From a virus, in IMG/VR virus record IMGVR_UViG_3300046736_000176, positions 1 through 47,993 of that record: a stretch of DNA of 47,993 nt; one strand, given 5' to 3'. This document shows positions 5,065-47,993 of the stretch, piece by piece. Made by a program: the position numbers and the translations under genes. A model generated the notes under the pieces. That model searched no databases. It saw only the letters and a list, made by a program, of their open reading frames with translations, and was not told the origin of the DNA. The number at the start of each line of letters is the position of its first letter. Position 1 is the stretch's first letter.

Positions 5065-5779
5065 GCGGGAGGAGCCTCGGCCGGTGGAGGTTTGCTGCGT
5101 TCTCCGGGGACGGTCCCGGCGGGGAACTGAAGCAGGGCGTTCATGAGATTGCGGCTCATGTTCGGATCACGGTCGGGAGCGGTAGGTGTCGTCTTGTCCT
5201 TCGGCTTCAGGCCCTTACGGTAAGGCGCCAGGACCTCGGACAGATTGGGCAGGCGGTTGACGCGGCCGAAATAGCCGATGTGCCAGGCTGTGTGAATAAA
5301 TCTCTCATCCTCGTCTAGCTTGAGGAGATTGTGCGCCTCAATGCACAGGCGTGTTTCGAAGGGGGTTTGGTTCCAGAACTCCGCGGTCTTGATATCCGCC
5401 CGAAAAGCGGTCTTGATGACGGCGATCAGACCTTTTTCGCCGTCTTCTTCGGAGGGTTTTCCTCCGCCTCCGGGGCCTTGACCTCAGGCGGTTCCTTGGT
5501 CCCGAACCACGCATAGTTGATCATGTCGCTCACCTTCTCGATCGACGGCTCGATCGGAGGTGCCCGATCCATCACCCACTCGGCGCTGACATCCTTCTGA
5601 TCCGGCAGGCAGATCGCCATGATGGTGGCCAGGGTCTTCATGTCCATCAGATCGTAGCCATCCGGATAAAGCTCCCTGATCTGGGCCACACCGTGCCATG
5701 TCAGGCGCATGATGTAGGTGACGCCGTCGATCTCAATCGGTACGGTGCCGCGAACCGGGTTCGCAGTTTGATCGCTCAA
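5061..5779 (-). CDS. Tail assembly chaperone, long form made by probable -1 frameshift (gpGT-like)
   Basis: In siphophages the gene before the tape measure usually makes a short chaperone (G) and a longer frameshift form (GT). Here the short frame ends at 5426, while the -1 frame is open from the slip region (5432-5438) to a TGA at 5063-5061 that overlaps the tape measure ATG. The extension is about 123 residues and begins GLIAVIKTAFRADIKTAEFW; it contains TRLCIEAHNLLKLDEDERF and ends AEAPPA. It has no ATG until deep inside, consistent with access only by frameshifting. The full GT product would be about 239 residues. The chaperone coats the tape measure while the tube is built. Frameshifting is inferred from architecture; the slip site is not an ideal heptamer. 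Confidence 0.72.
5426..5779 (-). CDS. Tail assembly chaperone, short form (gpG-like)
   Basis: A 117-residue protein in the position of the siphophage tail assembly chaperone, directly before the frameshift extension and the tape measure. Visible features: an N-terminal beta-type segment (VPIEIDGVTYIMRLTWHGVA), a helical middle (DLMDMKTLATIMAICLPD) and a Lys/Pro-rich tail ending KKTAKKV, where ribosomes would slip. Its ATG overlaps the stop of the upstream small gene (5776-5779). The product binds the tape measure during tail assembly and is not expected in the mature virion. Alternative: an unrelated tail protein, but gene order argues strongly for the chaperone. Confidence 0.78.
   Translation of the reverse strand: MSDQTANPVRGTVPIEIDGVTYIMRLTWHGVAQIRELYPDGYDLMDMKTLATIMAICLPDQKDVSAEWVMDRAPPIEPSIEKVSDMINYAWFGTKEPPEVKAPEAEENPPKKTAKKV
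5432..5438 (-). other. Candidate -1 ribosomal slip site (GAAAAAG)
   Basis: On the minus strand the 0-frame reads GCG AAA AAG GTC TGA. A -1 slip on G-AAA-AAG gives GAA AAA GGT CTG and joins the 123-codon open extension. The heptamer departs from X-XXY-YYZ at the first base, so slipping would rely mainly on the AAA/AAG run. Confidence 0.55.
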
Positions 5780-6009
5780 GGGATACTCTCTGGTGGGGGT
5801 GGGGGTTGGTGACAGCGCATGCGCCGGCGAAGGGCGGCGCGAAGCTGGCCGTGCAGGTGCGCTCGCACCCGCTTCGGTAGGGAAACCCAGCGCTCGGCGA
5901 GCAGCCCGGATTCAGGGTAGCATGCCGCTGTGAGGATCAGCGCCTCGTCAATCGCCTCCCAAAGTTCAGGATAGTCGACGTCGGTGAGCCACTTGTTGGC
6001 AGTTGCCAT
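5776..6009 (-). CDS. Hypothetical protein between tail tube and chaperone genes
   Basis: A 77-residue protein of unknown function. It has an acidic helical N-terminal half (DVDYPELWEAIDEALILTAA), a basic middle (LPKRVRAHLHGQLRAALRRR) and a proline run near the end (PPPPPE). It overlaps the chaperone start by four bases (ATGA) and starts about 10 bases after the preceding gene, so it belongs to the tail operon. The position suggests a small tail-assembly factor, but nothing in the sequence proves it. Confidence 0.6.
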   Translation of the reverse strand: MATANKWLTDVDYPELWEAIDEALILTAACYPESGLLAERWVSLPKRVRAHLHGQLRAALRRRMRCHQPPPPPESIP

Positions 6010-6018
6010 GGAACGACC

Positions 6019-6417
6019 TCAGCGGGCGTATGAGTAAAGCTTCCAGGCCGGCAGAACGAAGAGGTAATTGTGTTCAACCCCGCTGAAGCACTCGACCGGA
6101 TCCTGGTCGCACAGCACGCGCAGGACGGCGTCTCTGGGGTCCGCCGGATTGGTCTCCGCGATCTTGTCCGTGACCACACAGCTCCGGCCGAAATATGTCA
6201 CGCGCTGGCCAACCTCGTACGGCAGGATCGGAATGGATGGGCTCAGGTCCGGGCCGGTGGACATGGCCATGATGCGCTGGCCGTCCTCGCCGCGCTGATC
6301 CATCAAAACCTGGTACGAGAAATCAACCGGCCCGCCAATGACACCGTGGATGGTCCCAATCCCGTTGGGATACCCCTCATTGACCACGACGCGCTGTCCC
6401 AGGAGGAAAGCCGCCAT
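6019..6417 (-). CDS. Hypothetical tail-region protein
   Basis: A 132-residue protein with no family I recognise. It looks beta-rich: the opening LLGQRVVVNEGYPNGIGTIH and the later LPYEVGQRVTYFGRSC each resemble a small barrel strand pair (VGQRV..Y.G), suggesting two similar SH3-like halves. It contains three Cys and ends in an aromatic stretch (FVLPAWKLYSYA). It follows the small zinc-finger gene by 2 bases and precedes the next gene by 9, so it is co-transcribed with tail genes. Confidence 0.65.
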   Translation of the reverse strand: MAAFLLGQRVVVNEGYPNGIGTIHGVIGGPVDFSYQVLMDQRGEDGQRIMAMSTGPDLSPSIPILPYEVGQRVTYFGRSCVVTDKIAETNPADPRDAVLRVLCDQDPVECFSGVEHNYLFVLPAWKLYSYAR

Positions 6418-6419
6418 GG

Positions 6420-6596
6420 CTACTTGCCTTCCGGAGCAGAGACGGCATCCTCGGGAACACGGTCCTCAAGGCGGGAGACCGGGACGGGCACGTGGCCGTG
6501 TCCCGGTGCCCCGGTGCAAAGGTATTCATGGGCAGGGGTGATAAGCCCGACCACTTCCCTGCCGCAGGTCGGGCAGGTGTACACGGCGCCGCTCAT
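6420..6596 (-). CDS. Small putative zinc-binding protein
   Basis: A 58-residue protein starting at ATG 6596, which overlaps the stop of the Acb2-like gene (ATGA). It opens with a CPTCG knuckle at residues 8-12 and has a downstream HEYLC, so one metal site of Cys-x2-Cys plus His/Cys type is plausible. The rest is Pro/Val/Glu-rich (HVPVPVSRLEDRVPEDA) and probably unstructured. Frame and start were set by the stop-start overlap. Function unknown; small zinc proteins of this kind are common beside phage tail genes. Confidence 0.6.
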   Translation of the reverse strand: MSGAVYTCPTCGREVVGLITPAHEYLCTGAPGHGHVPVPVSRLEDRVPEDAVSAPEGK

Positions 6597-6832
6597 AGGG
6601 TCCTCTCCTGTTTCTGCTGTTCCGCACGCTGGTTCACGACGTTCCGATAAAGACTGCACCGGACGATGCAGTCCTTCGCTTCCATCAGTTTCCTCAGGCC
6701 AGCCGTCCGCTCCGGGTTGGACGGCAGCGTTTCGACGATGTGCTGGGCCATGTCGTGGAACGGCTTGCTGATCTTCTGAAGATGCTCCGGCAGGTGCGAG
6801 TAGCCAAAGAATTGCATCATCGGATCTGTCAT
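6593..6832 (-). CDS. acb2: Acb2-like cyclic-nucleotide sponge (anti-CBASS)
   Basis: A 79-residue protein whose first 60 residues closely match the pattern I know for Acb2 (Vs.4-related) phage proteins: FFGYSHLPEHLQKISKPF, then VETLPSNPERTAGLRKLMEA and KDCIVR. Family members form hexamers that sequester cyclic di- and trinucleotides (and some related signals), blocking CBASS and in some cases Thoeris immunity. The helical hairpin with Tyr11, a Lys near residue 23 and the PERT-x3-RKL-x-EAKD motif are all present; no key residue appears missing. It sits between tail tube and tail chaperone genes, a position where small accessory genes are often tolerated, and would be expressed late unless read from another promoter. 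Assignment is from remembered motif pattern, not a search. Confidence 0.8.
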   Translation of the reverse strand: MTDPMMQFFGYSHLPEHLQKISKPFHDMAQHIVETLPSNPERTAGLRKLMEAKDCIVRCSLYRNVVNQRAEQQKQERTL

Positions 6833-6870
6833 GAGAGCGTTCTCTCAGGTTGCTTTAATGCGATGATATA

Positions 6871-7299
6871 CTACGCTGGGTTGAAATCCCATACTACCGC
6901 ACCCGTCACTTCAAGTGTAACCGTCGCCGTCGTCAGCGCATCAACGCCGCCGCCGACCGTGAAGCCCATGACGTAGGCAGCGAAGGTGCCGGTCGCGTTA
7001 TTAACGTCTGAGAAGGTGATCTTGAAGTTCTTTCTGATCTGCGCTGCACGGTCTGCGAGCAAAGCTTGCTGCCCGGTATCTCCTGGCACGAAATTTAATT
7101 CGAGCGTCAATTGGCCCTCATCCATCAGACCCATGACTTTCTCCTTACCCGTGCTAAGGAGCGTCGTAGCGTCGATAATCGCGGCGCTACCGCCAGGGCC
7201 GGAGAAGGAACGAACTTCAGCGATGGAGACGAACGTTCCGGGGGTTGAGCCCTCACGACCAATAATGGTCCCTTGGGCGTTGAAAGCCGAGGTTGCGAT
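6871..7299 (-). CDS. Tail tube (major tail) protein with apparent ATC start
   Basis: A 142-residue tail tube protein. The N-terminal part reads IATSAFNAQGTIIGREGSTP, then FSGPGGSAAIID and KEKVMGLMDEGQLTLELNFV; the C-terminal part has VPGDTGQ, KITFSDVNNATGTFAAYVMG and VTLEVTGAVVWDFNP. This is the usual layout of siphophage tube subunits, and the length is normal only if translation begins near 7299. In that frame there is no ATG, GTG or TTG upstream of Met48; a TAG precedes by four codons. A strong AGGAGG sits five bases before an ATC codon at 7299-7297, so I place the start there. A start at the internal ATG (7158) or 7134 would remove a third of the domain and leave the Shine-Dalgarno unused. 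Confidence 0.82.
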   Translation of the reverse strand: MATSAFNAQGTIIGREGSTPGTFVSIAEVRSFSGPGGSAAIIDATTLLSTGKEKVMGLMDEGQLTLELNFVPGDTGQQALLADRAAQIRKNFKITFSDVNNATGTFAAYVMGFTVGGGVDALTTATVTLEVTGAVVWDFNPA

Positions 7300-7338
7300 A
7301 GTAGCCTCCTATACAACTTAGGGGTTGAAACAGGCAAC

Positions 7339-7362
7339 AAAAAACCCCGCCGGAGCGGGGTT
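7339..7362 (-). terminator. Rho-independent terminator after the HNH gene
   Basis: Minus strand: eight-base-pair stem AACCCCGC / GCGGGGTT with a TCCG tetraloop followed by a T tract. It lies 27 bases past the HNH stop and just before the tail-tube Shine-Dalgarno. Confidence 0.88.
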
Positions 7363-7388
7363 CCTGATGTCTGCCTATGGGCGGGGGT

Positions 7389-8213
7389 TTAGGGAATGTG
7401 TTTCCATCTCTGGTTCTTGCGGATGCCTTGGATCAGGCTATGACTAACGCCGTATCTGGCCGCCATCTCTCGATCTGAGTACAATCCGGCATCACGCCGA
7501 ATTTCTCTTATTTGATCTTCAGTAAGCTTCGCCAGAGCTTTCTCTTCTCCAACTATCTGCCTGCCCTTACCCGTCATGTCATCCATGTTTTCTTGATGGG
7601 TTCCCAGGAACAGATGGTCAGGACGGCAGCACGGCGGATAGTCGCACTCATGGAGAACGAACTGTCCATCCAGAATGGGTCCGTTCTCCAACTCCCATGA
7701 GAAGACATGCGCGGTAACGACATCCGACGTTTTACTGTCAGACTGGTTGATCATCCCGTACCCGAACTTGTGCTTAGCTCCGGTAAACACCCAGCAATCA
7801 CCCTTGGGGCCACGCCCAGGTGTCGTGTCAACCTTGCTGTAAAGCTTGCAGCGGTTGGAACAGTACTTTGGACGTGACGCCCGCACCGCCCCAGGCTTCA
7901 GCACCGGTGCCGGAATTGGTGTCTGGCAGTGCGGGCACAGAACAACCCGTCCCTGACGCTTCTTCTCAACGCGCTGATCTCTTGTCGCGTTGTTGCTTTT
8001 CGTCCAGGTGGCCCTTGCCCGATCAGGATCCGCGTTCCGCCACTTTGCGGCATTTTCATTGGCGCACTCAAGGCATGCGCTGGAACTCACGTTGCGTTCC
8101 GAGATATGACCACGGGAGCATGCTTCACCTGTGAAGTATCTCTTCTCACCGGAGGCTATCGCCTGCTCCTTGGTGACAACGGGACGATTTTCGGGTATCA
8201 GTTGGGAAGCCAT
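7389..8213 (-). CDS. Free-standing HNH endonuclease
   Basis: A 274-residue HNH nuclease. The N-terminus has a CSRGH...CLECANENAAKWR finger common in phage HNH proteins; a second finger has CPHC and CSNRC. The catalytic core is VLHECDYPPCCRPDHLFLGT, with the His-Glu pair, metal-binding cysteines and the Asn/His part (HLFLGTHQENMDD). The C-terminus is a helix-turn-helix (LTEDQIREIRRD, then SDREMAARYGVSHSLIQGIR) probably used for site recognition. Start at 8213 is supported by AGGA six bases upstream. It is flanked by its own extended -10 promoter and a terminator, and separates tail genes, so it looks like a mobile homing-type gene, not a virion component. Target site unknown. Confidence 0.9.
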   Translation of the reverse strand: MASQLIPENRPVVTKEQAIASGEKRYFTGEACSRGHISERNVSSSACLECANENAAKWRNADPDRARATWTKSNNATRDQRVEKKRQGRVVLCPHCQTPIPAPVLKPGAVRASRPKYCSNRCKLYSKVDTTPGRGPKGDCWVFTGAKHKFGYGMINQSDSKTSDVVTAHVFSWELENGPILDGQFVLHECDYPPCCRPDHLFLGTHQENMDDMTGKGRQIVGEEKALAKLTEDQIREIRRDAGLYSDREMAARYGVSHSLIQGIRKNQRWKHIP

Positions 8214-38087: not shown

Positions 38088-39188
38088 CTATACCGTCATA
38101 TTGCTTTCGGTGCAAGGACTTTCCCTCAAGGCGATCTCATTTGAGCGGAATTGACACGGAAGATCTGACTTTCGCGGTTCTGCGCCATCTCTTTTACCCA
38201 TGGCCTGCTCGAAGACACGCGGAGGGGGATCGAACGCGTGGCGGAACTCCGTCAACGTCACACCGGTGAACAGGGTGCTTGCGCGCTCGAACAGCGCTTC
38301 CAGGTCGCCGTAGAGCCTCTCGATAGATTCCGAATCTGGGAAGGTCGGACTACCGGCCGGTAAGAACTCGGACGAATGAAGCATAAACTCGACATGGGAC
38401 GCTCCAGCCGCCGCCGCTTCCTCCACCTGGGAAATCATGGCGGCACGGTTGCAGCCGTTGGGTCTCAGCCACTGGTTTCTCAGTATCCGGCTGATCACGG
38501 TGCGCGCCATCCCGGAGCGGGACAGGATGGCTCGGACCAGCGGCCGGAATGAGATAGGACAGCGCTTCGAAATCGTCATGGGCACTTCCAGCAAGGAGGA
38601 ACTGCCAGGACGGCTGATGTCTTCCGGATCGATGAAATAGGGTTCTGTCGGGAAGTCCCGATAGTCGCTGCCGCCAGAAGAGACCGGGTCTCCCAGCGTC
38701 CTGCGCCAATCCACATACGGGGTGACGGAACAGTCCGTCAGGTAGCCATATTCCATGAGCGTGCGGGCATACTGCGCGTTCATGGCCCAGCGCCCAGAGC
38801 GATGGCTGGTGATTTGGGTTCCGAAGACATCGGCCAGCAGCTTGGTCATGAAATCGACCTTGGCCCGCAGCGCCTTTGCCGGATATTCGATCAGGAATGG
38901 TTTGTGCTGGTTGTCATCGCCCGTCAGCCTCTCTATGGGCGGGGAGTTCCAGGCATGCAGGTGCATGCCGATCTCTCCCTTGCCGCGGGCCTGAACGTCT
39001 CTCCCGAATTCGACGAAAGCCGGGGAGATCGCCATCTCATAGTTGACGAGATAGGTCGGCCTCAGGGAGAAGCGCTCACAAAGTCGCTGGAACCGGGGAA
39101 GGTAGAGGGCATTCCGCGTCGTGATTTCCCTGGGGCCGCTCCAGAGGTCGTCCCCTTCGGTGTCAATGGTGACGATGAAGCTCCCCAT
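38088..39188 (-). CDS. NodB-like polysaccharide deacetylase
   Basis: A 366-residue protein with polysaccharide deacetylase motifs: FIVTIDTEGDD at the N-terminus (catalytic base / metal Asp), GKGEIGMHLHAWNSPP (the H-x-H metal site), TSHRSGRWAMN (Arg motif) and a C-terminal EFMLHSSEFLP. In such enzymes a metal-bound water removes N- or O-acetyl groups from sugars. It has no signal peptide, so it would act in the cytoplasm, perhaps on lipid-linked sugar precursors or on a virion component. AGGGGA precedes the ATG. It lies between the head morphogenesis and scaffold genes, an unusual place for an enzyme of this kind, and ends at a strong terminator. Confidence 0.8.
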   Translation of the reverse strand: MGSFIVTIDTEGDDLWSGPREITTRNALYLPRFQRLCERFSLRPTYLVNYEMAISPAFVEFGRDVQARGKGEIGMHLHAWNSPPIERLTGDDNQHKPFLIEYPAKALRAKVDFMTKLLADVFGTQITSHRSGRWAMNAQYARTLMEYGYLTDCSVTPYVDWRRTLGDPVSSGGSDYRDFPTEPYFIDPEDISRPGSSSLLEVPMTISKRCPISFRPLVRAILSRSGMARTVISRILRNQWLRPNGCNRAAMISQVEEAAAAGASHVEFMLHSSEFLPAGSPTFPDSESIERLYGDLEALFERASTLFTGVTLTEFRHAFDPPPRVFEQAMGKRDGAEPRKSDLPCQFRSNEIALRESPCTESNMTV

Positions 39189-39913: not shown

Positions 39914-40906
39914 TTATAGGCCTAACTCCTTTCGAGCACCTGAATAGTCTGTGGGACCTTGGTCCCGTTCTCTCCTTCTCTGTTCTAACCATTTTTTGAG
40001 GTCAGGGCTATCCGCTGTCCGACCGTCGAAGTCATCCGGATCGATCCGACGCTGAAGACGCGGCGGGAAATCCTTGAAAGCGTGTAGCACTGGTATGATA
40101 TGCGACCTGCAATTGTAATGGAGAGGAGGAAGAATAAAAACCTTGCTATGGCCAATCGGAGTTCCGTCCAGGGTCCACAGCAGCCCGGACCTAGACCGAC
40201 AAATATCGGAAGTATTTATGTCAAGTACAGATAGATGTGCCAGGGCGCGAAACAATTCCGGATGGCGGATCGCCGTCTCGAAACGAACCCGGTTGGCGAC
40301 CGCGTGATGGGCGCTGCGGATCAGTCCCTCGGCGTTGCGCGGCGCTGCGGTGAACAGGCTTCCGGGACCGGTATCCCGAATGGCATTGACCAGGTCTCCT
40401 GTCCCAGGCTCCTTGCCGATCTGGGACAGGCGCATCGCGTCTTGCAGGGCGCGCGCTGTCCTGAACTGCATGTCGACGCTCTGGCGCTGCCACCAGTCCT
40501 CGATGGAAGCACCGGACACCAGCGTATCCCGGCGCGCGGCGGCAAGGGCGTCATCGTCCAGTTTGCGGGACAGCCCCTTGATCAGGAGCAGCAGGGCCAG
40601 CAACTCGGACAGGCTGTCCTGGGAAAGTTCGGCCACGTCGTCCAAATCGCCGGAGACCTGGGACTCGATCTCGTCGTAGGCTTCTGAGATCACCCGGTTG
40701 GCCTGATCTACCAGGATTTCCAGGCGAGCGCGTCGGTTGGCATCCCGGATCACAGCGGTCGGGTCGAGCTTGACCACCAGCATGGCAAGGTCGTCGCTTA
40801 GTTGCATCAGCCGGTCCATCACGATGCCGAAGCTGTTTTGAGCCAGAGCATCCAGGACGAGACCTAATTTTATAGCCTCGTCCCGGAGATCGGAATTGGC
40901 GGTCAT
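39914..40906 (-). CDS. Head morphogenesis protein, SPP1 gp7 / Mu F-like
   Basis: A 330-residue minor head protein. The N-terminal 180 residues are helical (LDALAQNSFGIVMDRLMQLS, ELLALLLLIKGLSRKLDDDA). The C-terminal part has the family signature: LSVLDINTSDICRSRSGLLW, the GTPIGH turn and PPLHYNCRSHIIPVLHAF, i.e. D-x2-T-x-x-C ... P-P-x-H-x-x-CRS. These proteins bind the portal and enter the procapsid in small numbers. Start and stop overlap neighbours (40906 shared with the methyltransferase gene). The C-terminal signature region is visibly AT-richer than the N-terminal part. Confidence 0.88.
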   Translation of the reverse strand: MTANSDLRDEAIKLGLVLDALAQNSFGIVMDRLMQLSDDLAMLVVKLDPTAVIRDANRRARLEILVDQANRVISEAYDEIESQVSGDLDDVAELSQDSLSELLALLLLIKGLSRKLDDDALAAARRDTLVSGASIEDWWQRQSVDMQFRTARALQDAMRLSQIGKEPGTGDLVNAIRDTGPGSLFTAAPRNAEGLIRSAHHAVANRVRFETAIRHPELFRALAHLSVLDINTSDICRSRSGLLWTLDGTPIGHSKVFILPPLHYNCRSHIIPVLHAFKDFPPRLQRRIDPDDFDGRTADSPDLKKWLEQRRRERDQGPTDYSGARKELGL

Positions 40907-41724
40907 CAGGCCGGCAGTGTTCTGGTCATCAGGAACACCATGGAATTTTCAGAATAGGGCTCGAGCGGCTCGCTCTTGAAGTCTGGGTTTTCTTCCATGA
41001 ACTCGTCGAACGCTTTCTTCTCCCCGAGGTTTCTTTCGTCCAGGCCGCCGCATTTCCAGTCATCGAACATGATGATGGAATGGGAGGCCAGCAGCGGGGC
41101 CACGAAAGTGAGCGCCTGCTTGGCAGAGATGTACAGATCGCTGTCGATCATGACGATTCCGACGTTGCCGATCCTGAATTGCCAGACCAGATCCTTGGTC
41201 AGGGTTTGGGAAAACCATCCCCGGATCAGGAACGTCCGTTTCCAATCCACCCCACGCCGGGTCATCAGTTGGCTGGCGAACTCTATCGGAGAGGCGAGCT
41301 GGCCGGGAGTCCACAGGTCGCCGTCCTGGCCGGAAGCTTCTTCCGGCAGTCCCTCGAAGCTGTCGAAGCCGAACAACCTGACGGCGCTCTCTCCGGTTTC
41401 CGTCAAGGCATCGTGCATGCAGGCCATCGAAGACCCGAAACAGACCCCGAACTCCAGGTAGTCCCCGATGTACTTGTCCGTGCCTGGAACGTCCGTCCTC
41501 AGTCTCCGCAGCACCTCGATCGCGTTGATCATGCATCTCGTCAGTTCCTTTTCCGGCACGAGGCCCTTGCGATCGACCAGGGCGCAGCGATGCATCCGGC
41601 GAAGGTAGCGGCGGCGGGATATCCGGCGCAGGGGTTCAAGCAGGTGGAGACGATCGAGCACCCGATAGACCTGCTCGGACGCTTTCGTTCCAAGGCTTCC
41701 GGAACCCTGGATTTGCTTGAACAT
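40906..41724 (-). CDS. TylF/MycF-like methyltransferase, copy 2
   Basis: A 272-residue class I SAM-dependent methyltransferase of the macrocin O-methyltransferase (TylF/MycF) type. SAM-binding motif I is GDYLEFGVCFGSSM; then LFGFDSFEGLPEE, FLIRGWFSQT, VGIVMIDSDLYISAKQALTF (the metal-binding Asp pair) and HSIIMFDDWKCGG. The ATG (41724) overlaps the previous stop as TGATG. It is a clear duplicate of the upstream gene. TylF enzymes methylate sugar hydroxyls, so a glycan or nucleotide-sugar substrate is expected. All expected motifs are intact. Confidence 0.85.
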   Translation of the reverse strand: MFKQIQGSGSLGTKASEQVYRVLDRLHLLEPLRRISRRRYLRRMHRCALVDRKGLVPEKELTRCMINAIEVLRRLRTDVPGTDKYIGDYLEFGVCFGSSMACMHDALTETGESAVRLFGFDSFEGLPEEASGQDGDLWTPGQLASPIEFASQLMTRRGVDWKRTFLIRGWFSQTLTKDLVWQFRIGNVGIVMIDSDLYISAKQALTFVAPLLASHSIIMFDDWKCGGLDERNLGEKKAFDEFMEENPDFKSEPLEPYSENSMVFLMTRTLPA

Positions 41725-42614
41725 CAGGAGGCATCCTTTCCCTGTCGATCTGCGGTTCCTGGAGACCCTATCCTTTTCATCAGGAACACGGCAGAACTGG
41801 GATAGAGGGATGGCAGTTGATCTGCCTCGAAGCGGCTTTTGTTTTCTTCCATGAACTCGAGGAACGCTTTCTTCTCCCCGAGGTTCTTGGCCGCCAGGTC
41901 CCCGGAGTTCCAGTCGTCGAAGACGATGACGGACCATTCCGCCAGGAGCGGCCCCGCGAAATCCAAGGCTTCCTTGGCCGCCGTGTAGATATCGCAGTCT
42001 ATCATCACGATGCCGACCTTGCGGATGTGGCATTCCCGAGCCATGGCCGGCGTGCAGGTATCTTTGAACCATCCCTCGATCAGGAACGTCTCTTTCCAGT
42101 CGATGCCGCGTTGGTTCAGCAGGTTTCTGGTGAACCTGACGTCGCTGTCGAATTGGCCTTCGCTGAAAAAGCCGAGGTCCTGGTGGTCCGCTTCCGGCGG
42201 CAGACCCTGGAAGCTATCGAACCCAAACTTCCTGGTCATCTCGGTTCCGGTTAGGATCAGGGCGTCGTGCATGCAAGCCATGCTGGATCCATGGCACACG
42301 CCGAATTCGAGATAATCTCCTATCCTGGGACCGAGTTTTTCCCTCAGGATCGTGATGGCTTCGACATAGGTTGCCGTGAGGTGCTGCTCCGGAACGAGGC
42401 CCCGGCCACGCAAGGCCTGCCGCTGTTTCCGGAACCGGTAGACGCGGCGGGATACGGCGCGAAGGGACCGGAACAGGCCCAGCGCATGGAGCGTCCGGTA
42501 CAGGGAGGTATTCAAATGCTGTGGCAGGGAAGAACTGGGAAGGCTTGCTGAAGCGCTGTGAGGGGGGCTGTGGGGGCTTCTGTCAGAGGTGTTGTGAGAG
42601 TCTTGGGTGATCAT
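41724..42614 (-). CDS. TylF/MycF-like methyltransferase, copy 1
   Basis: A 296-residue paralogue of the next gene. Residues 1-36 are Ser/Pro/His-rich and probably disordered. From residue about 95: GDYLEFGVCHGSSM (SAM site), FGFDSFQGLPPEADHQD, FLIEGWFKDT, VGIVMIDCDIYTAAKEALDF and WSVIVFDDWNSGD. The metal-site Asp residues are conserved. The pair lies between the portal-side regulator and the minor head protein, so both are carried inside the head operon. They may methylate host surface sugars or a virion glycan. Confidence 0.85.
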   Translation of the reverse strand: MITQDSHNTSDRSPHSPPHSASASLPSSSLPQHLNTSLYRTLHALGLFRSLRAVSRRVYRFRKQRQALRGRGLVPEQHLTATYVEAITILREKLGPRIGDYLEFGVCHGSSMACMHDALILTGTEMTRKFGFDSFQGLPPEADHQDLGFFSEGQFDSDVRFTRNLLNQRGIDWKETFLIEGWFKDTCTPAMARECHIRKVGIVMIDCDIYTAAKEALDFAGPLLAEWSVIVFDDWNSGDLAAKNLGEKKAFLEFMEENKSRFEADQLPSLYPSSAVFLMKRIGSPGTADRQGKDAS

Positions 42615-42720: not shown

Positions 42721-42963
42721 TTAGCCTTCCATCCGCCGGTTGACGATGTAGAGCCGGATGGCGAGGCCGAGATTGCCGTGGCTGCCGGACCGAATCCGGC
42801 TGACGAGCTGATTGGCGCTGATCCTGTCCCTGGACGCCACGGCCCTCAGTTCAGCCCACATCGCATCGGAGATGGCAATGCTGGTTGGTTTGCCGAGAAC
42901 GGAGAGGGAGCGCTTGCGCGCCCCCTTTTGTCTGACTTCGTCGTCAGAATACATCGCGGTCAA
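42721..42963 (-). CDS. Ribbon-helix-helix DNA-binding protein (RHH_4-like)
   Basis: An 80-residue protein with a strand followed by two helices: KPTSIAISDAMWAELRAVAS, then RDRISANQLVSRIRSGSHGN and LGLAIRLYIVNRR. This fits the RHH_4 family common in alphaproteobacteria (strand 'TSIAISDAMWAELR', 'LSxNxLVxxI', 'NLxxAIRLYIV'). It may repress or tune late transcription, although it lacks a neighbouring operator that I can recognise. The ATG overlaps the portal stop by four bases. A short GCCGGA/TCCGGC hairpin follows its stop. Confidence 0.8.
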   Translation of the reverse strand: MTAMYSDDEVRQKGARKRSLSVLGKPTSIAISDAMWAELRAVASRDRISANQLVSRIRSGSHGNLGLAIRLYIVNRRMEG

Positions 42964-44504
42964 CCCCGCTGGTTGTCTCTGCGGGGAGCCTTGACGCCGG
43001 TCTGGACGCCCCCCGGCTGTCTCATCATCGGTTTGTTGGCTCCAGGAGACGCATTCGGTTTTCCCGCCCCGCCGACGGTCTGGCCGGCCGCCGTCTGACC
43101 AGTGGCCGTCGCCGTTCCGGGCAGGCCGATAAGCATGGGCTTCTCCTTCTCCAGGGCATCGACCAGTTCCTCAAGGCTGCGGCCCGGCTGGACCAACTCG
43201 CCGCGCATCAGGTTCCAGGCATAGTCCTCCATGGTAAGCAGGCCCTCTCTCTTGGCCGTCACCAGTCCGAGGAGATCCTGGCTGGTCATGCCGCCCGCCT
43301 CGAAGTCCGTGTTGAGGGTGCATTGGAATTTCTCCGGATCCTCATCGACCAGGGTCGCCATGATCCGAAGGGCGTTGGTGTAGGCTTCAGAGCACGACAT
43401 GGCGATATCTGCCAGGGACGCCGTCTCCCCGCTGGAGCGCGTGTTGAGGGCTTCCGCCGTTTCCGTGGCCTTCTTCTTATCTTCCAGCATTTGGGCGCCG
43501 AGTTTGCCCATGTGCCGGTCCGTGCGGTCGAGGGCGCGCTCCAGTGCCCCCAGCCCGTCGCCGTGGAACTCCAGGTATTCGGCGCTGGCTCCAGCCGGGA
43601 GAAGCCAGATGATGCTTTCCGAGATGACGAACTTGTGTTGGTCGTCTGCATCGACACCCTGGATCCAAGGCACCGGAAAGGCCGTTTTATGAAGGCCCGC
43701 GTTGACATCTACACTGAAGCGCCAATGGGCGACATTGGCCTCCGCCATGGCGAGCATCGGCGGCTGCTCCGGTTCCGGCCGCTGGTTGCGCGGCCCCATG
43801 AAGATGAACGGGATGTACCTGATCGGTTTGCCGCCGATCCTGAGCGGTGGTCGCACGGCGCCGCCCATCTGGACGAACATGCCGGCGCCGTTGTTGCCAA
43901 AGAAGCGAACGGAGTAGTAGCCCTCCGAGTCGAGTTCGAGAACCCGGAAGCGCGGTTTGAAGATGGAGCCGAAGCCATCCGGGGCCGGATAGTCGACCGA
44001 CTCCTCCAGGATGACCTGATCGAGGACACGGCTGCCGTTGACCAAGCGGAAGCGCCAGTTGCGGATCGACTCGGCGGAATACCCGGCGATGAACGGGATC
44101 GGCGTCCGGGTGCGGTCTCCGGCGTCTTCCTCGACATCGATCAACATGCCGTAGCGCCCCTTCGTCAGAACGTCGAAGGTGGCGTTCTTGGTGAAGGTGT
44201 GGATGGAGTCGCCGGTATTGGTGATGTTCTCCTCCCTCGCCTGCAAGCGTCCGGCCAGAGTCACGATCGGGACCTTTCTGTAGATCTGACCGATGAAAGC
44301 GGTGGCCGTCTTGGCGAGAGCGCCATACCAGCTCCCGCGGTTCAGGTAATCCCGGTACTCGATCTCGTTCTTGTGGCCGGTCAGTTTCGGCACATAACTC
44401 TCACCGGCGCGAATCATGGCCCGTCGGCCGCCGAGGCAATCCGTGATCATCTGCCACTCGATCTGTCTTTCGATGTAAGACGGATGCAAATCCGTTATAG
44501 GCAT
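42960..44504 (-). CDS. Portal protein, DUF4055-like
   Basis: A 514-residue protein starting at ATG 44504 (AGGA seven bases upstream). The first part is PITDLHPSYIERQIEWQMIT, then MIRAGESYVPKLTGHKNEIE, the opening of the phage DUF4055 family that serves as portal. The middle has RGSWYGALAKTATAFIGQIY and YRKVPIVTLAGRL; then LTKGRYGMLIDVEEDAGDRT and FRVLELDSEGYYSVRFFGNN. The helical EYLEFHGDGLGALERALDRT and KKKATETAEALNTRSSGETA follow, and a Gly/Gln-rich tail closes it. A portal is the dodecameric DNA gate where the terminase docks. An in-frame ATG at 44645 would read through a terminator and was rejected. Confidence 0.85.
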   Translation of the reverse strand: MPITDLHPSYIERQIEWQMITDCLGGRRAMIRAGESYVPKLTGHKNEIEYRDYLNRGSWYGALAKTATAFIGQIYRKVPIVTLAGRLQAREENITNTGDSIHTFTKNATFDVLTKGRYGMLIDVEEDAGDRTRTPIPFIAGYSAESIRNWRFRLVNGSRVLDQVILEESVDYPAPDGFGSIFKPRFRVLELDSEGYYSVRFFGNNGAGMFVQMGGAVRPPLRIGGKPIRYIPFIFMGPRNQRPEPEQPPMLAMAEANVAHWRFSVDVNAGLHKTAFPVPWIQGVDADDQHKFVISESIIWLLPAGASAEYLEFHGDGLGALERALDRTDRHMGKLGAQMLEDKKKATETAEALNTRSSGETASLADIAMSCSEAYTNALRIMATLVDEDPEKFQCTLNTDFEAGGMTSQDLLGLVTAKREGLLTMEDYAWNLMRGELVQPGRSLEELVDALEKEKPMLIGLPGTATATGQTAAGQTVGGAGKPNASPGANKPMMRQPGGVQTGVKAPRRDNQRG

Positions 44505-44541
44505 GGTTCTTCCTGCTGCGCCCGAGCAAATCAGGCACATC

Positions 44542-44570
44542 AAAAGGCCCCGCGGGATAACCGAGGGGCC
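44542..44570 (-). terminator. Rho-independent terminator before the portal gene
   Basis: Minus strand GGCCCC-T-CGG-TTATC-CCG-C-GGGGCC followed by TTTT. It separates the terminase block from the head block. Confidence 0.82.
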
Positions 44571-44610
44571 GGTGGGGTGGTGGGGCGGTGGCGTCAAACG
44601 GGGTCGGGAA

Positions 44611-44814
44611 TCACAGGCGGGTTTGGATCGCGAGAAGGACGGCATCCTTCAGCCGGCCGTCGAACTCTTTCCAGGCAGCCGTTCGTACCTGCCGGGAAAC
44701 CGTGAGCTTGTAGGAGGGCGCGCTGAACACGTAGTAGCCGCCCTCGAAGGCGTAGGTGATGGGAACCTTGTACTCGCGGCCCTGGACCACGACGGTTCTG
44801 TTGAGCATGGCCAT
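44611..44814 (-). CDS. Small beta-rich hypothetical protein
   Basis: A 67-residue protein: LNRTVVVQGREYKVPITYAF, GGYYVFSAPSYKLTVSRQVR, then WKEFDGRLKDAVLLAIQTRL. Two or three strands followed by a helix. It starts three bases after the preceding stop, so it is co-translated with the terminase-like gene. Not recognised. An internal start two codons later is equally possible. Confidence 0.6.
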   Translation of the reverse strand: MAMLNRTVVVQGREYKVPITYAFEGGYYVFSAPSYKLTVSRQVRTAAWKEFDGRLKDAVLLAIQTRL

Positions 44815-44817
44815 GGG

Positions 44818-45321
44818 TCAGGCTAGGGACCGGGTGATGGCAGAATAGTCGATCTCCCTGGGAGCAACGCCGTCGTCAAACTGTGGCGTTGGCACGGAGT
44901 CCGGATTAAGCGGGCTGCCGACCGTGACAAGGGTCATCCTGGTCCGGAAGCGAGGCTTGAGCCGAGTGGTCAGGAAACGCAGGAACCGAGGCTCTATCCA
45001 CGACATGGGATCGTCTATGATGACGAAAGGCCAGGTCTCTACCATCCCTGCGGCTTCCTGGAGATCCTTGACCACATGAATGGACAGACTGGCGTTTGAG
45101 GCCAGCCGGTAGGTGATCGGGCCATGGAAGATACGGGTTCTCTCGTGAGCGGGCAGGACGGCGTTGGCCCGGACCAGGTAATCGTCACGCTGCTTTTCCG
45201 TGGGGCAGAAGACGGCTCCAGACCCGTGCGTGCCACCGCAGGTAACCGCCTCGTTGAGCCACATGCGCAACGCACAATCGATGGTCGACACCGTGATCAG
45301 GCTTTTCCTTGAGGCAATCAT
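44818..45321 (-). CDS. Degenerate terminase-ATPase-like protein
   Basis: A 167-residue protein. Its order of motifs is that of the middle of a terminase motor domain: GAVFCPTEKQRDDYLVRANA, YRLASNASLSIHVVKDLQEA, then a Walker-B-like PFVIIDDPMSW and a following TLVTVGSPLNPDS resembling the coupling motif of terminase ATPases. The Walker A loop is absent: the N-terminus has only RKSLITVSTID. It is therefore either a relic or a non-hydrolysing partner. Its ATG overlaps the previous stop (45318-45321) and its C-terminus (REIDYSAITRSL) resembles that of the upstream gene. The function is not established; the motor-domain link is my inference. Confidence 0.55.
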   Translation of the reverse strand: MIASRKSLITVSTIDCALRMWLNEAVTCGGTHGSGAVFCPTEKQRDDYLVRANAVLPAHERTRIFHGPITYRLASNASLSIHVVKDLQEAAGMVETWPFVIIDDPMSWIEPRFLRFLTTRLKPRFRTRMTLVTVGSPLNPDSVPTPQFDDGVAPREIDYSAITRSLA

Positions 45322-45794: not shown

Positions 45795-47495
45795 TCATCT
45801 CCCGACCAGATCCCCTATCTTTAGCGTCCTTGAGCCAGTCATGCACGCGTAACGGGTGCCATCAGCGCAGTGATCTTCCTGGGTTGTATCAAGCTCGTCG
45901 AAATCATTGTCAGATCTCTGCATGACGGGCACCGTTCTCAACCAATGAACGCAACTCTCGAATACCCACAGGCCAGGACGTTCCGGCCTCTCTTGACTGG
46001 AACTCTCCAGCATGTCGCGCATCTTCTGCCAACCGGCGACTCTGTTGTTGTCTGCCGGAGCCATGATCAGGTTGTGACCGGCCTCTTTGGCGCCCTTGCG
46101 CATCTCGTCGTAGATGCTTTCTCTACCGAGCTTTGAGTAAATCGATGGATCTGCGACACATCCAGAGAACCGATGGCCCAGGGAACGCTCCGCGATACCC
46201 TTCCCCAGCGCGAGATTGGTCAGGCGCAGGCCGTCGTTGGGGATGATGTCTCCAGACTTGGTCTTGGCACAGGTATACCACTCCTTGACCAGGATCAGGG
46301 AGCCCCTGGGAAACACGAAACCATCCAGTTGAGAGACTGGGTTGCCGTCCGACACGGCCCATATCCCAAGCCATGCCGGGGCGGCGCTGCCCCAGTCGAA
46401 CGAGCGGCGCCAGCTCCATCCCGCCGGGATGGAGAAGGGCTGGAGGAAGTGTCTGCTCGGGATGATCAAATCGTCGAAGAATCCGCCGGCAACGATATCC
46501 CAGTCGCCATTCAGCCAGGCGTTGACCAGAGTTGCCGATCCCGTCCCGCGCAGCCGGTTGGCGTAGGTCGGGTCGTTCTTCATCATCGCGGAATTGTCCG
46601 TCAGCCTGGACGGGATATAGATCCGAAACTCCCCGGTTTCCTCGTCCTTGATCGGCGTCCAGCCCTGGGGCGCGGGAGAGATGTATCTCGCCTTGACCCA
46701 GGAGTTCCCACTGACCCAGACCGAACCGTCTTGCTGAAGAATGAAGCTGTGCGTTTCCTGGACCCCGATGCAGTAGACATCCCCCTCGTAGTCATACGTC
46801 TCCAGGGCAGCGGTGGTGAGTTCCAGGTCATCCCTGAGATATTGGTCCATCTTGAGACGGGTGCCATCGAAGAACAGGCTCCTGGGAATCGTGAACTCAT
46901 CCGGCATCTCATTGAAGGCAACGAGAGAGATCTTCCCGTCCGGCCCAACAACCGCGATCTTGTGGTTGGGCGTGAACACCATGCTCATGTCGTCCTGGGC
47001 AAGGGTCATCATCGGACCGCTGTAATGCCGCTTGTGGGTCTGGCTGACACGGGAGGCCTTGATCTCGCCGTACGGGGTCACCGTCATTACGGCATCTCCG
47101 ACCTTCAAGTCCTTGATATCCGTCCAGCCGGTGGGCGTCCGGACAAGGCCATACGGAACGCAGTGTCCACTGCCGCCAGGATTTCCGGTCATGATAAGCT
47201 CCGGCGTCACTCCCGCGCTGGATCGGAGAGTGCCGCGCAGCCTGTTGATGGCATCGGGGGTACTCCAGTTGGTCACCTCCTCGAAACATAGGAATGAATT
47301 CTTGTTTAGCAACCCTGTTTCTGTGATATAGTGATTTGCGTCTCTCACAGTCAAATCATAGACAGGGCAACTACCACATGGCGTCAATCGGACAGAACCC
47401 CATTCCACTGGAACTACTGCATGCCGCCGCTCTCTGGTATAGGGGTGGATATATTGCGAATTCTCCAGGTGGGTATCTTCGAGAGTACAATCCAT
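45795..47495 (-). CDS. terL: Large terminase, C-terminal fragment carrying two intein segments
   Basis: Extein parts are terminase: SFLCFEEVTNWSTPDAINRL (Walker B) to TGNPGGSGH (coupling motif), then SWVKARYISPAPQGW and the nuclease domain with acidic residues in FDWGSAAPAW, VADPSIYSKLG and DHCADGTRYA. It cuts and pumps genomic DNA. Between GH and SWVK lies a complete 153-residue mini-intein (46704-47162). Before SFLCFEE lies the C-terminal end of another intein. No Walker A domain is in view; it must lie right of 47993. The minus frame stays open to the window edge, but beyond about 47430 it looks like the antisense of an HNH gene, so I begin this fragment at ATG 47495, the first Met before the intein end. 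That start is uncertain, and a continuous reading to the right cannot be excluded. Confidence 0.82.
   Translation of the reverse strand: MDCTLEDTHLENSQYIHPYTRERRHAVVPVEWGSVRLTPCGSCPVYDLTVRDANHYITETGLLNKNSFLCFEEVTNWSTPDAINRLRGTLRSSAGVTPELIMTGNPGGSGHCVPYGLVRTPTGWTDIKDLKVGDAVMTVTPYGEIKASRVSQTHKRHYSGPMMTLAQDDMSMVFTPNHKIAVVGPDGKISLVAFNEMPDEFTIPRSLFFDGTRLKMDQYLRDDLELTTAALETYDYEGDVYCIGVQETHSFILQQDGSVWVSGNSWVKARYISPAPQGWTPIKDEETGEFRIYIPSRLTDNSAMMKNDPTYANRLRGTGSATLVNAWLNGDWDIVAGGFFDDLIIPSRHFLQPFSIPAGWSWRRSFDWGSAAPAWLGIWAVSDGNPVSQLDGFVFPRGSLILVKEWYTCAKTKSGDIIPNDGLRLTNLALGKGIAERSLGHRFSGCVADPSIYSKLGRESIYDEMRKGAKEAGHNLIMAPADNNRVAGWQKMRDMLESSSQERPERPGLWVFESCVHWLRTVPVMQRSDNDFDELDTTQEDHCADGTRYACMTGSRTLKIGDLVGR
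46704..47162 (-). other. Complete mini-intein in the terminase coupling motif
   Basis: 153 codons from Cys1 (47162) to Asn153 (46704). Block A: CVPYGLVRTPTGWTDIKDLK with VGDAVMTV; block B: MVFTPNHKIAVVG (T-x-x-H); block F: DVYCIGVQETHSFILQQD; end VSGN before Ser+1. It has no LAGLIDADG or HNH domain. Removal restores TGNPGGSGH-SWVKARYI, which is the normal terminase sequence. The penultimate residue is Gly where most inteins have His. Confidence 0.9.
47298..47495 (-). other. C-terminal segment of a second intein upstream of Walker B
   Basis: The part nearest the extein, GSCPVYDLTVRDANHYITET then GLLNKN, has intein block F (VYDLTV-x4-HYI) and ends with Asn at 47298 before Ser+1 of SFLCFEE. VVPVEWGSVRLTP just before it also fits an intein strand. 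The penultimate residue is Lys. The N-terminal half of this intein is not in the window; the right-hand boundary given (47495) is only the first Met. Confidence 0.75.
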
Positions 47496-47993
47496 TCCAT
47501 CCGGCAGGCTCCAGGCGCGGACTTGTTCTTCAGCATAGACTGGTAATGGAGCGGAAGCTAGGTCGCCTTCTCTCTGAAGAAGAAGTTGTTCATCATGAGG
47601 ACGAGGATAAAACAAACAACGATCCTGAGAACCTTGTCCTCTTTCCGAACCAGAAAGCTCACGCGCACTACCATCGTCTCCAGGACGCGGCATGTCATGA
47701 TACAACCATGATAGAGAAGGTTCGGCAAGCCGCCGCAGATCCGAAAGCAAAGCTGACTGATCTTGGTATCTCTGAGCCGACGATCCGGAAGATATGCCGG
47801 ATGTACGGGATATTCTGGAAGCGTGCGGATAAGGCGGACCTGACCGAAGATCAGGTACGTGAAACACTACAGGGCAGGACAACGGAGGAAGCGGCAGCAC
47901 TTCTCGATGTCCATCCCCAGACACTCTACAATCGCTTCGATCATCTTCTGGATAAGCGGAATGCCCCAGGCTTCCTCGATGAGCATCGAGAAG
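47378..47993 (+). CDS. HNH endonuclease on the plus strand, runs off the right edge
   Basis: ATG 47378 opens a frame of at least 205 codons that is unbroken at 47993. It contains a textbook HNH motif: GGYIANSPGGYLREYNPFHP, GLVLQHRLVMERKLGRLLSE, then EEVVHHEDEDKTNNDPENLV and NQKAHAHYHRL (His-His-Glu, Asn-Asn, terminal His residues). Further on LTDLGISEPTIRKICRMYGI and GRTTEEAAALLDVHPQTLYN look like helix-turn-helix units for DNA contact. It is the only protein on the plus strand that I accept. Its first 40 codons overlap the intein C-terminal segment of the terminase on the other strand. A weak AGGG lies upstream. Likely the homing nuclease linked to the second intein. Confidence 0.82.
   Translation, partial: MASIGQNPIPLELLHAAALWYRGGYIANSPGGYLREYNPFHPAGSRRGLVLQHRLVMERKLGRLLSEEEVVHHEDEDKTNNDPENLVLFPNQKAHAHYHRLQDAACHDTTMIEKVRQAAADPKAKLTDLGISEPTIRKICRMYGIFWKRADKADLTEDQVRETLQGRTTEEAAALLDVHPQTLYNRFDHLLDKRNAPGFLDEHRE

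What the first reader, a model, noticed from the sequence alone, without database searches (positions are those of the whole stretch)
47298..47993. Large terminase broken at an intein, with an HNH nuclease gene on the opposite strand in the gap
Directly visible: terminase Walker B is preceded by an intein C-terminal end (VYDLTV...HYITETGLLNKN before S), and immediately beyond that lies a strong HNH gene on the other strand. Known: inteins normally carry their nuclease in frame and on the same strand; 'fractured' genes with split inteins and a separate nuclease gene between the halves have been described. Inference: this terminase is either made from two genes joined by trans-splicing, or has a continuous frame whose nuclease domain was replaced by an antisense HNH gene. 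Either would be unusual for a packaging motor.
Basis: partly seen in the sequence, partly recalled or inferred. Interest (0 to 1): 0.82.

Follow-up and report, generated by a model that had tools for sequence, protein, structure and literature searches.

The report
Terminase intein with antisense endonuclease gene
A phage DNA-packaging gene carries a self-splicing protein insert (an intein) whose DNA is read on both strands: one strand gives the unbroken intein and the other a separate DNA-cutting enzyme that probably spreads the insert, an arrangement found here in about 75 different phage sequences but not described in the papers I could search.

Summary
An intein C-terminus (NHYITETGLLNKN^S) ends just before Walker B of TerL. 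A strong HNH gene (47378 to the record end, + strand) lies opposite it. The TerL/intein frame on the minus strand stays open through the whole HNH gene (45795-47993). The window is the entire IMG/VR record, so its TerL N-half is missing, but relatives show the complete picture: TerL-N, Cys1 and N-blocks, read-through of the antisense HNH, C-blocks and TerL-C in ONE frame. I found about 77 non-redundant cases, always in the same antisense register, with zero sense stops where synonymous shuffling expects about 322. A search with the intein instead of the HNH gave the same: 52 of 55 carry the antisense HNH. It occurs at two TerL sites (Walker A and B) and in isolated phages (Pectobacterium phage Ymer and relatives, Pseudoalteromonas phage PHS3). 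Close relatives have the empty site; others have HNH-truncated or HNH-less mini-inteins. AlphaFold gives a Hint fold with a disordered spacer opposite the HNH core. Trans-splicing is refuted. Best reading: a cis-splicing intein whose homing endonuclease is encoded antisense, overlapping its own splicing domain. Splicing and cleavage are inferred.

The parts
45795..47993 (-). Continuous TerL/intein reading frame (732 aa, 5' end cut by the record end), open through the antisense HNH gene
   Evidence: PHROG terminase large subunit hits
47298..47993 (-). Intein b (Walker B site), C-terminal part; N-blocks lie beyond the record end
   Evidence: intein_Cterm hit; full-length relatives; Hint fold of the L018 relative
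47859..47873 (-). PVVFH: sense motif inside the HNH overlap, conserved in relatives; the matching stretch forms a predicted Hint strand in the L018 model
47436..47447 (-). HPYT: sense motif inside the HNH overlap, H and Y invariant in 52/52 relatives, kept in the HNH-less mini-intein
47298..47363 (-). Intein b C-terminal splicing blocks VYDLTVRDANHYITETGLLNKN, followed by Ser+1
47378..47992 (+). Antisense HNH endonuclease gene (205 aa from ATG 47378; runs off the record end), nested in intein b
47531..47659 (+). HNH_3 domain
   Evidence: Pfam HNH_3 E 3.7e-11, residues 66-108 of the ORF starting at 47336
47879..47932 (+). Helix-turn-helix of the HNH protein
   Evidence: several HTH families, residues 182-199, below their curated cut-offs; helices in the model
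47163..47297 (-). TerL segment with Walker B (SFLCFEE) between inteins b and c
   Evidence: empty-site homologues L100, L101
46704..47162 (-). Mini-intein c (153 aa), GSGH^CVPYG...VSGN^S
   Evidence: Pfam Intein_splicing (below cut-off); same insertion in L002, L100, L101
45798..46703 (-). TerL C-terminal part (nuclease domain), ends ...DHCADGTRYACMTGSRTLKIGDLVGR
42960..44645 (-). Portal protein gene downstream (context)
   Evidence: phrog_145 E 4e-107

Best explanation
It is a contiguous (cis) intein in the large terminase. It is translated in full as part of TerL and splices itself out, restoring the Walker B strand (inferred from intact catalytic residues and fold). Its mobility enzyme is not an in-frame domain: it is a separate HNH plus helix-turn-helix gene on the opposite strand, nested entirely inside the intein-coding DNA and overlapping the splicing domain at both ends. 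The HNH protein would cut intein-less terminase genes near the insertion site, and repair from the donor would copy the whole intein with its antisense gene (homing; inferred). The two frames are kept compatible by a fixed register and by placing the HNH catalytic core opposite a disordered, freely variable spacer of the intein. Shown here: arrangement, register, open frame, constraint on both frames, and empty, truncated, mini and full states. Inferred: splicing, DNA cleavage, homing, antisense expression.
For: Nine relatives from the first scan: one open TerL frame through a fully nested antisense HNH, same register. 64 non-redundant HNH genes: 0 stops in the sense frame vs 322.6 expected from synonymous shuffles, other registers near expectation. 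Independent retrieval by intein motif: 55/55 without sense stop, 52/55 with antisense HNH in that register. HNH under protein selection: codon-position differences 44/37/81, 71% identity vs 48% for the sense reading of the same DNA; conserved HNH residues. Sense frame under protein selection inside the overlap: HPY 52/47/52 of 52, z 23-33, retained in the HNH-less mini-intein. AlphaFold: Hint halves confident, middle disordered; PDB matches are inteins. HNH model pLDDT 91, weak best match I-HmuI. Cys1 in nearly all complete relatives, mostly C-terminal Asn with C/S/T+1. Empty site in close relatives. Shine-Dalgarno-like sites before HNH starts above null. Isolated phages Ymer and PHS3.
Against: No splicing, cleavage or expression was measured. 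The window's own intein N-blocks and TerL-N lie outside the record. The penultimate residue is Lys, not the usual His, and block B lacks the usual Thr in many members. The window's own HNH ribosome site and promoter-like site are ordinary. The family grouping selects on openness (answered).
Confidence: 0.87

Rival explanations
1. Fractured gene: TerL is made from two genes with a split intein and joined by trans-splicing, the HNH being a free-standing gene between the halves.
For: In the window alone the N-half is absent and an HNH gene follows the intein C-terminus. Fractured genes with a nuclease gene between the halves are known (Dassa et al. 2009, not held; own knowledge).
Against: Complete relatives have one frame; there is no reason to keep about 200-300 codons free of stops and in frame if the halves were separate. 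Ymer and PHS3 also have single frames.
Confidence: 0.02
2. The antisense HNH is no homing enzyme but a packaging-associated nuclease of the phage (as HNH proteins next to terminases can be), kept inside the intein for another reason.
For: HNH proteins such as HK97 gp74 work with terminase (own knowledge; title cited in PMC6293099). The gene sits in the terminase.
Against: The closest relatives L100 and L101 lack both intein b and its HNH; mini-inteins and truncated HNHs exist in other phages; the gene follows the intein, not a fixed place beside the terminase.
Confidence: 0.06
3. The HNH was once a homing enzyme but in most members only the reading frames survive; the element is now inherited vertically.
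For: Mini and truncated forms exist. HNH and TerL identities correlate positively (Spearman 0.30).
Against: HNH core residues are invariant across members and differences concentrate at third codon positions, which needs ongoing selection; presence and absence among close relatives.
Confidence: 0.04
4. The plus-strand HNH is a chance shadow of the sense frame, which itself encodes the nuclease domain.
For: Long overlapping open frames can arise by chance in GC-rich DNA (general knowledge).
Against: HNH profiles hit the antisense frame; no nuclease hit on the sense middle in the Pfam and NCBIfam scans, and it is predicted disordered; GC of the loci goes down to 37-40%; codon-position pattern favours HNH.
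Confidence: 0.01

Closest known systems
Phage terminase inteins with an in-frame homing endonuclease domain (mycobacteriophage TerL1-a to -e, PMC5050341)
   Same: Inteins in TerL at Walker A and Walker B; splicing shown for several and specific cleavage of the intein-less allele for two in that paper; close relatives with empty sites
   Different: There the nuclease is a domain of the intein protein; here it is a separate gene on the opposite strand
HNH_3 intein of cyanophage CL131 dCTP deaminase (PMC6293099)
   Same: Phage intein with an HNH_3 nuclease
   Different: HNH_3 lies in frame on the same strand (aa 259-304 of the precursor)
Fractured genes with split inteins and a nuclease gene between the halves (Dassa et al. 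2009; own knowledge, paper not held)
   Same: Intein plus a nuclease encoded as a separate gene
   Different: Here the intein frame is continuous through the antisense nuclease gene; no split
Group I introns with antisense homing endonuclease genes (Didymium and Diderma rDNA, PMC9548176)
   Same: Self-splicing element carrying its endonuclease gene in antisense
   Different: The intron is removed as RNA, so no sense reading frame must be kept; here both strands are protein-coding
I-HmuI-type HNH homing endonucleases
   Same: HNH core and a helix-turn-helix; best but weak structural match (E 0.2; sequence profile E 0.046)
   Different: I-HmuI is intron-encoded; similarity is remote

Membership tests
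Intein (cis-splicing, class 1) | N-terminal nucleophile (Cys1) at the splice junction | tested here: met
   Cys1 in nearly all complete relatives; not visible in the window itself because the record ends first
Intein (cis-splicing, class 1) | C-terminal Asn (or known substitute Gln) followed by Cys, Ser or Thr | tested here: met
   NKN^S in the window; C, S or T at +1 in relatives; a small group ends in Gln. The usual penultimate His is Lys here, which is typical but not required
Intein (cis-splicing, class 1) | Hint fold formed by N- and C-terminal blocks of one chain | tested here: met
   AlphaFold of the L018 relative; Mtu RecA mini-intein aligned across both halves with TMt 0.73, 6bs8 and others
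Intein (cis-splicing, class 1) | Precise in-frame insertion with an uninterrupted homologue | tested here: met
   L100, L101 and RcRudolph have the empty site
Intein (cis-splicing, class 1) | Self-excision with ligation of exteins | not testable with these tools
   Needs expression assay
Bifunctional intein with endonuclease domain | Endonuclease is part of the intein polypeptide, same strand and frame | tested here: not met
   HNH is on the opposite strand in all members; so it is not filed here
Split intein / fractured gene | Intein halves in two separate genes | tested here: not met
   One continuous frame in all complete relatives
HNH homing endonuclease | HNH domain with conserved catalytic residues | tested here: met
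   Pfam HNH_3 E 3.7e-11; invariant H72 H73 N81 N85 H95 in 27 relatives
HNH homing endonuclease | Cleaves the element-less allele and drives copying | not testable with these tools
   Empty, truncated, mini and full states were seen; activity not measurable here

The most novel reading that the evidence does not exclude
A class of mobile inteins is built as double-coding DNA: the C-terminal splicing block is at once protein code and, on the other strand, promoter-like sequence and ribosome-binding site of the endonuclease. Making the endonuclease (antisense transcript) and making terminase (sense transcript) could then exclude each other, timing homing to early infection. The antisense architecture would have arisen at least twice (Walker A and Walker B inteins, with differently built HNH proteins), and a third configuration (HNH in the +1 frame on the same strand) occurs in intein d of L101.
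Probability: 0.3. Interest if true: 0.92.

Novelty: new variant of a known kind. Interest (0 to 1): 0.86.

Why it matters
In the inteins described in the papers I could read, the endonuclease is a domain inside the intein protein. Here it is a separate gene read from the other strand of the same DNA, overlapping the splicing domain, so about 200-300 codons must work in both directions. This gives a large natural data set of dual-coding genes with recognisable function on both strands, explains mis-annotated terminases (Ymer: 'hypothetical protein'; PHS3: truncated terminase), and makes testable how an endonuclease is expressed from within an intein without being part of it. Cultivated phages carry it, so it can be tested now.

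Tried and rejected
I first took TerL's end CMTGSRTLKIGDLVGR for the start of a third intein: rejected, it is the normal TerL C-terminus, since L002 shows the same end after its intein d. tblastn of the window HNH against phage and plasmid records: nothing at 1e-5; site-A HNH queries did find the isolated phages. Other phage HNH hits inspected (PSTNGR2lys, ctXG6705, phiH) are in other contexts. Intein b of L022 against GenBank phages: no match. Antisense promoter: the best sigma-70-like site in 110 bp scores above the synonymous null (9.51 vs 8.86; none of 200 resamplings reached it), with perfect TTGACA-16-TATAAT in L018, L019 and L089. At the fixed block position only the -10 is enriched (P 0.013), the -35 is not (P 0.33), and the window's own site is ordinary: suggestive only. 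HNH and TerL identities correlate only loosely (Spearman 0.30); no tree was built, so movement between phage groups is not shown beyond the empty sites. The genome collection gave one more case in a Verrucomicrobiota MAG (L095). Dassa et al. 2009 could not be read.

Full report
OBSERVATION. The window is the entire virus record (47993 bp). At its right end, on the minus strand, lies a 732-aa open frame (45795-47993) with PHROG terminase large subunit hits and two intein C-terminal signatures. The first ends NHYITETGLLNKN^S directly before FLCFEE (Walker B). On the plus strand an ORF from ATG 47378 to the record end is an HNH_3 endonuclease with a helix-turn-helix. But nothing is broken: the minus frame is open through the entire HNH gene. 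Zero stops compares with 4.5 expected from synonymous shuffles of this HNH (P 0.0008).

RELATIVES SHOW THE MISSING HALF. A viral scan with the HNH gave 15 loci; in the relatives of 45-67% identity, the HNH lies antisense inside a terminase whose single frame contains (where the contig is long enough) TerL-N with Walker A, Cys1 and intein N-blocks (CVAxGTxVLMADGS...GDxVxTLEGP), the sense read-through of the HNH, the C-blocks, and TerL-C with Walker B. In all of them the register is the same: HNH codon position 1 pairs with sense position 1, 2 with 3, 3 with 2.

STATISTICS. A profile scan gave 80 viral and 2 genome loci. Of the non-redundant HNH genes, 64 have zero stops in that antisense register over 11,223 codons against 322.6 expected from synonymous shuffles; the other two antisense registers of the same genes show 369 and 563 stops against 369 and 518. 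The nine other relatives have 1-5 stops each. Two of the 64 (short matches L077, L096) are not inside a terminase and are not counted below. Because this grouping selects on openness, I repeated the search with the intein instead: 55 loci found by a sense-strand splicing motif. All 55 have no sense stop; 52 carry the antisense HNH in the same register, two (identical) have a 151-aa mini-intein without HNH and one is only partly matched. The union is about 77 non-redundant cases.

BOTH FRAMES ARE UNDER SELECTION. Between window and L002, differences at HNH codon positions are 44/37/81, and the HNH is 71% identical while the sense translation of the same DNA is 48% identical: over most of the overlap, HNH is the more constrained protein. 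Yet the sense frame is not free. Against a null that shuffles synonymous HNH codons, the sense motif H-P-Y is conserved in 52, 47 and 52 of 52 sequences (z 23-33) although the HNH residues at those columns vary (Y, C, S, R; G, D, S); a second peak is PVVLH; elsewhere the excess is small. The HNH-less mini-intein L165 keeps HPYT, so it is an intein element.

FOLD. AlphaFold of the L018 intein gives confident Hint halves at residues 1-110 and 281-338, plus the strand 143-149 that corresponds to the PVVLH-type motif; 153-279 is disordered. From the coordinates, the HNH gene covers intein residues of about 39-309, and its catalytic core lies opposite about 214-283, mostly the disordered part. The PDB matches listed are mainly inteins and other Hint proteins, with the Mtu RecA mini-intein aligned across both halves (TMt 0.72-0.73). 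The HNH model is confident (pLDDT 91), and its first PDB match is the HNH homing endonuclease I-HmuI, though weakly (E 0.2; sequence profile E 0.046).

MOBILITY. Among the window's closest relatives (about 79-80% identical TerL), L002 has intein b with the antisense HNH, while L100 and L101 have the bare site EEYQGHNY|SWLCFEELTNW; phage RcRudolph is also empty. L153 and L154 have truncated HNHs, L165 a mini-intein. Empty, full, eroding and mini forms are the states of the homing cycle described for ordinary inteins (PMC3229294).

SECOND SITE AND CULTIVATED PHAGES. Nine non-redundant loci (L061-L065, L069, L070, L073, L090) have the same arrangement at Walker A (for example GRG^C...HN^[STC]GKT) in other terminase families (Pfam Terminase_6N, Terminase_3; TIGR01547), where the Pfam Intein_splicing match spans the antisense HNH. 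In the one pair compared, a Walker A HNH (L061) shares only the core with a Walker B HNH (49% over 95 aa) and carries it near the other end, which suggests independent assembly (inference). Eight isolated Pectobacterium/Dickeya phages (Ymer, Abuela, Sabo, Koroua, Amona, Taid, Pappous, Setonix) and Pseudoalteromonas phage PHS3 carry this HNH. I checked Ymer and PHS3 in detail: frames of 771 and 708 aa are open across HNHs of 232 and 236 aa, with 0 stops against 5.2 and 8.0 expected. Ymer's gene is deposited as one 'hypothetical protein' without the HNH, and the Ymer paper mentions neither intein nor HNH. PHS3's was deposited as a short terminase plus an HNH gene.

EXPRESSION OF THE HNH. Ribosome-binding-site matches upstream of HNH starts exceed a null that resamples synonymous sense codons (mean best match 3.93 vs 3.26, none of 400 resamplings reached it; 11 vs 2.1 strong sites). 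Sigma-70-like sites over the C-terminal splicing block are also in excess, with three perfect TTGACA-16-TATAAT, but a position-specific test is only weakly positive. I treat the promoter as a hypothesis.

KNOWN OR NEW. The open-access searches turned up antisense homing endonuclease genes inside self-splicing elements only for group I introns (PMC9548176), where no sense frame has to be kept. Terminase inteins of mycobacteriophages are described with the nuclease domain inside the intein (PMC5050341). I found no report of an intein with an antisense endonuclease. The library is limited; the fractured-gene paper of Dassa et al. is not held. By membership it is an intein and, separately, an HNH endonuclease; it is neither a bifunctional intein nor a split intein. 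I rate it a new variant of a known kind, with high interest.

Noticed in passing
window 46704-47162 (-): A second, complete mini-intein (153 aa; GSGH^CVPYG...VSGN^S) in the same TerL, shared by L002, L100 and L101.
   Followed up: partly
L002:4049-8425 (-), same contig as L017: One terminase frame of 1459 aa with four inteins (Walker A, Walker B with antisense HNH, GSGH site, DH^C site near the C-terminus).
   Followed up: partly
L101:7043-7750 (+), inside the TerL frame 4744-7920 (+): Intein d holds an HNH_3 gene (E 4e-13) on the SAME strand in the +1 frame while the TerL frame stays open (0 stops vs 7.2 expected): another overlapping arrangement.
   Followed up: partly
L002, L048, L059, L100: Walker A of TerL: Walker A inteins that begin with Ala or Leu instead of Cys/Ser and end HN^T, as expected of class 3 inteins (class judged from own knowledge).
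   Followed up: no
L025, L029, L034, L035, L036: A group of Walker B antisense-HNH inteins that appears to end in Gln instead of Asn (SSQ^T, NAQ^S, QAQ^T).
   Followed up: no
window 44818-45321 (-), similar ORF downstream of TerL in L002: Small ORF after TerL that weakly resembles the TerL ATPase domain without its Walker motifs (21% over 129 aa, E 0.003 in a single pairwise comparison): possibly a degenerate terminase copy.
   Followed up: partly
window 38088-39188, 40906-42072, 41724-42614 (-): Inside the structural gene cluster, an ORF that looks like a polysaccharide deacetylase and two similar, neighbouring ORFs that look like sugar or macrocin-type methyltransferases (by eye, not searched).
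   Followed up: no
L172 (Pectobacterium phage Ymer) and L173 (Pseudoalteromonas phage PHS3): Deposited annotations hide the element: the large terminase is a 'hypothetical protein' in Ymer and is cut short in PHS3.
   Followed up: yes
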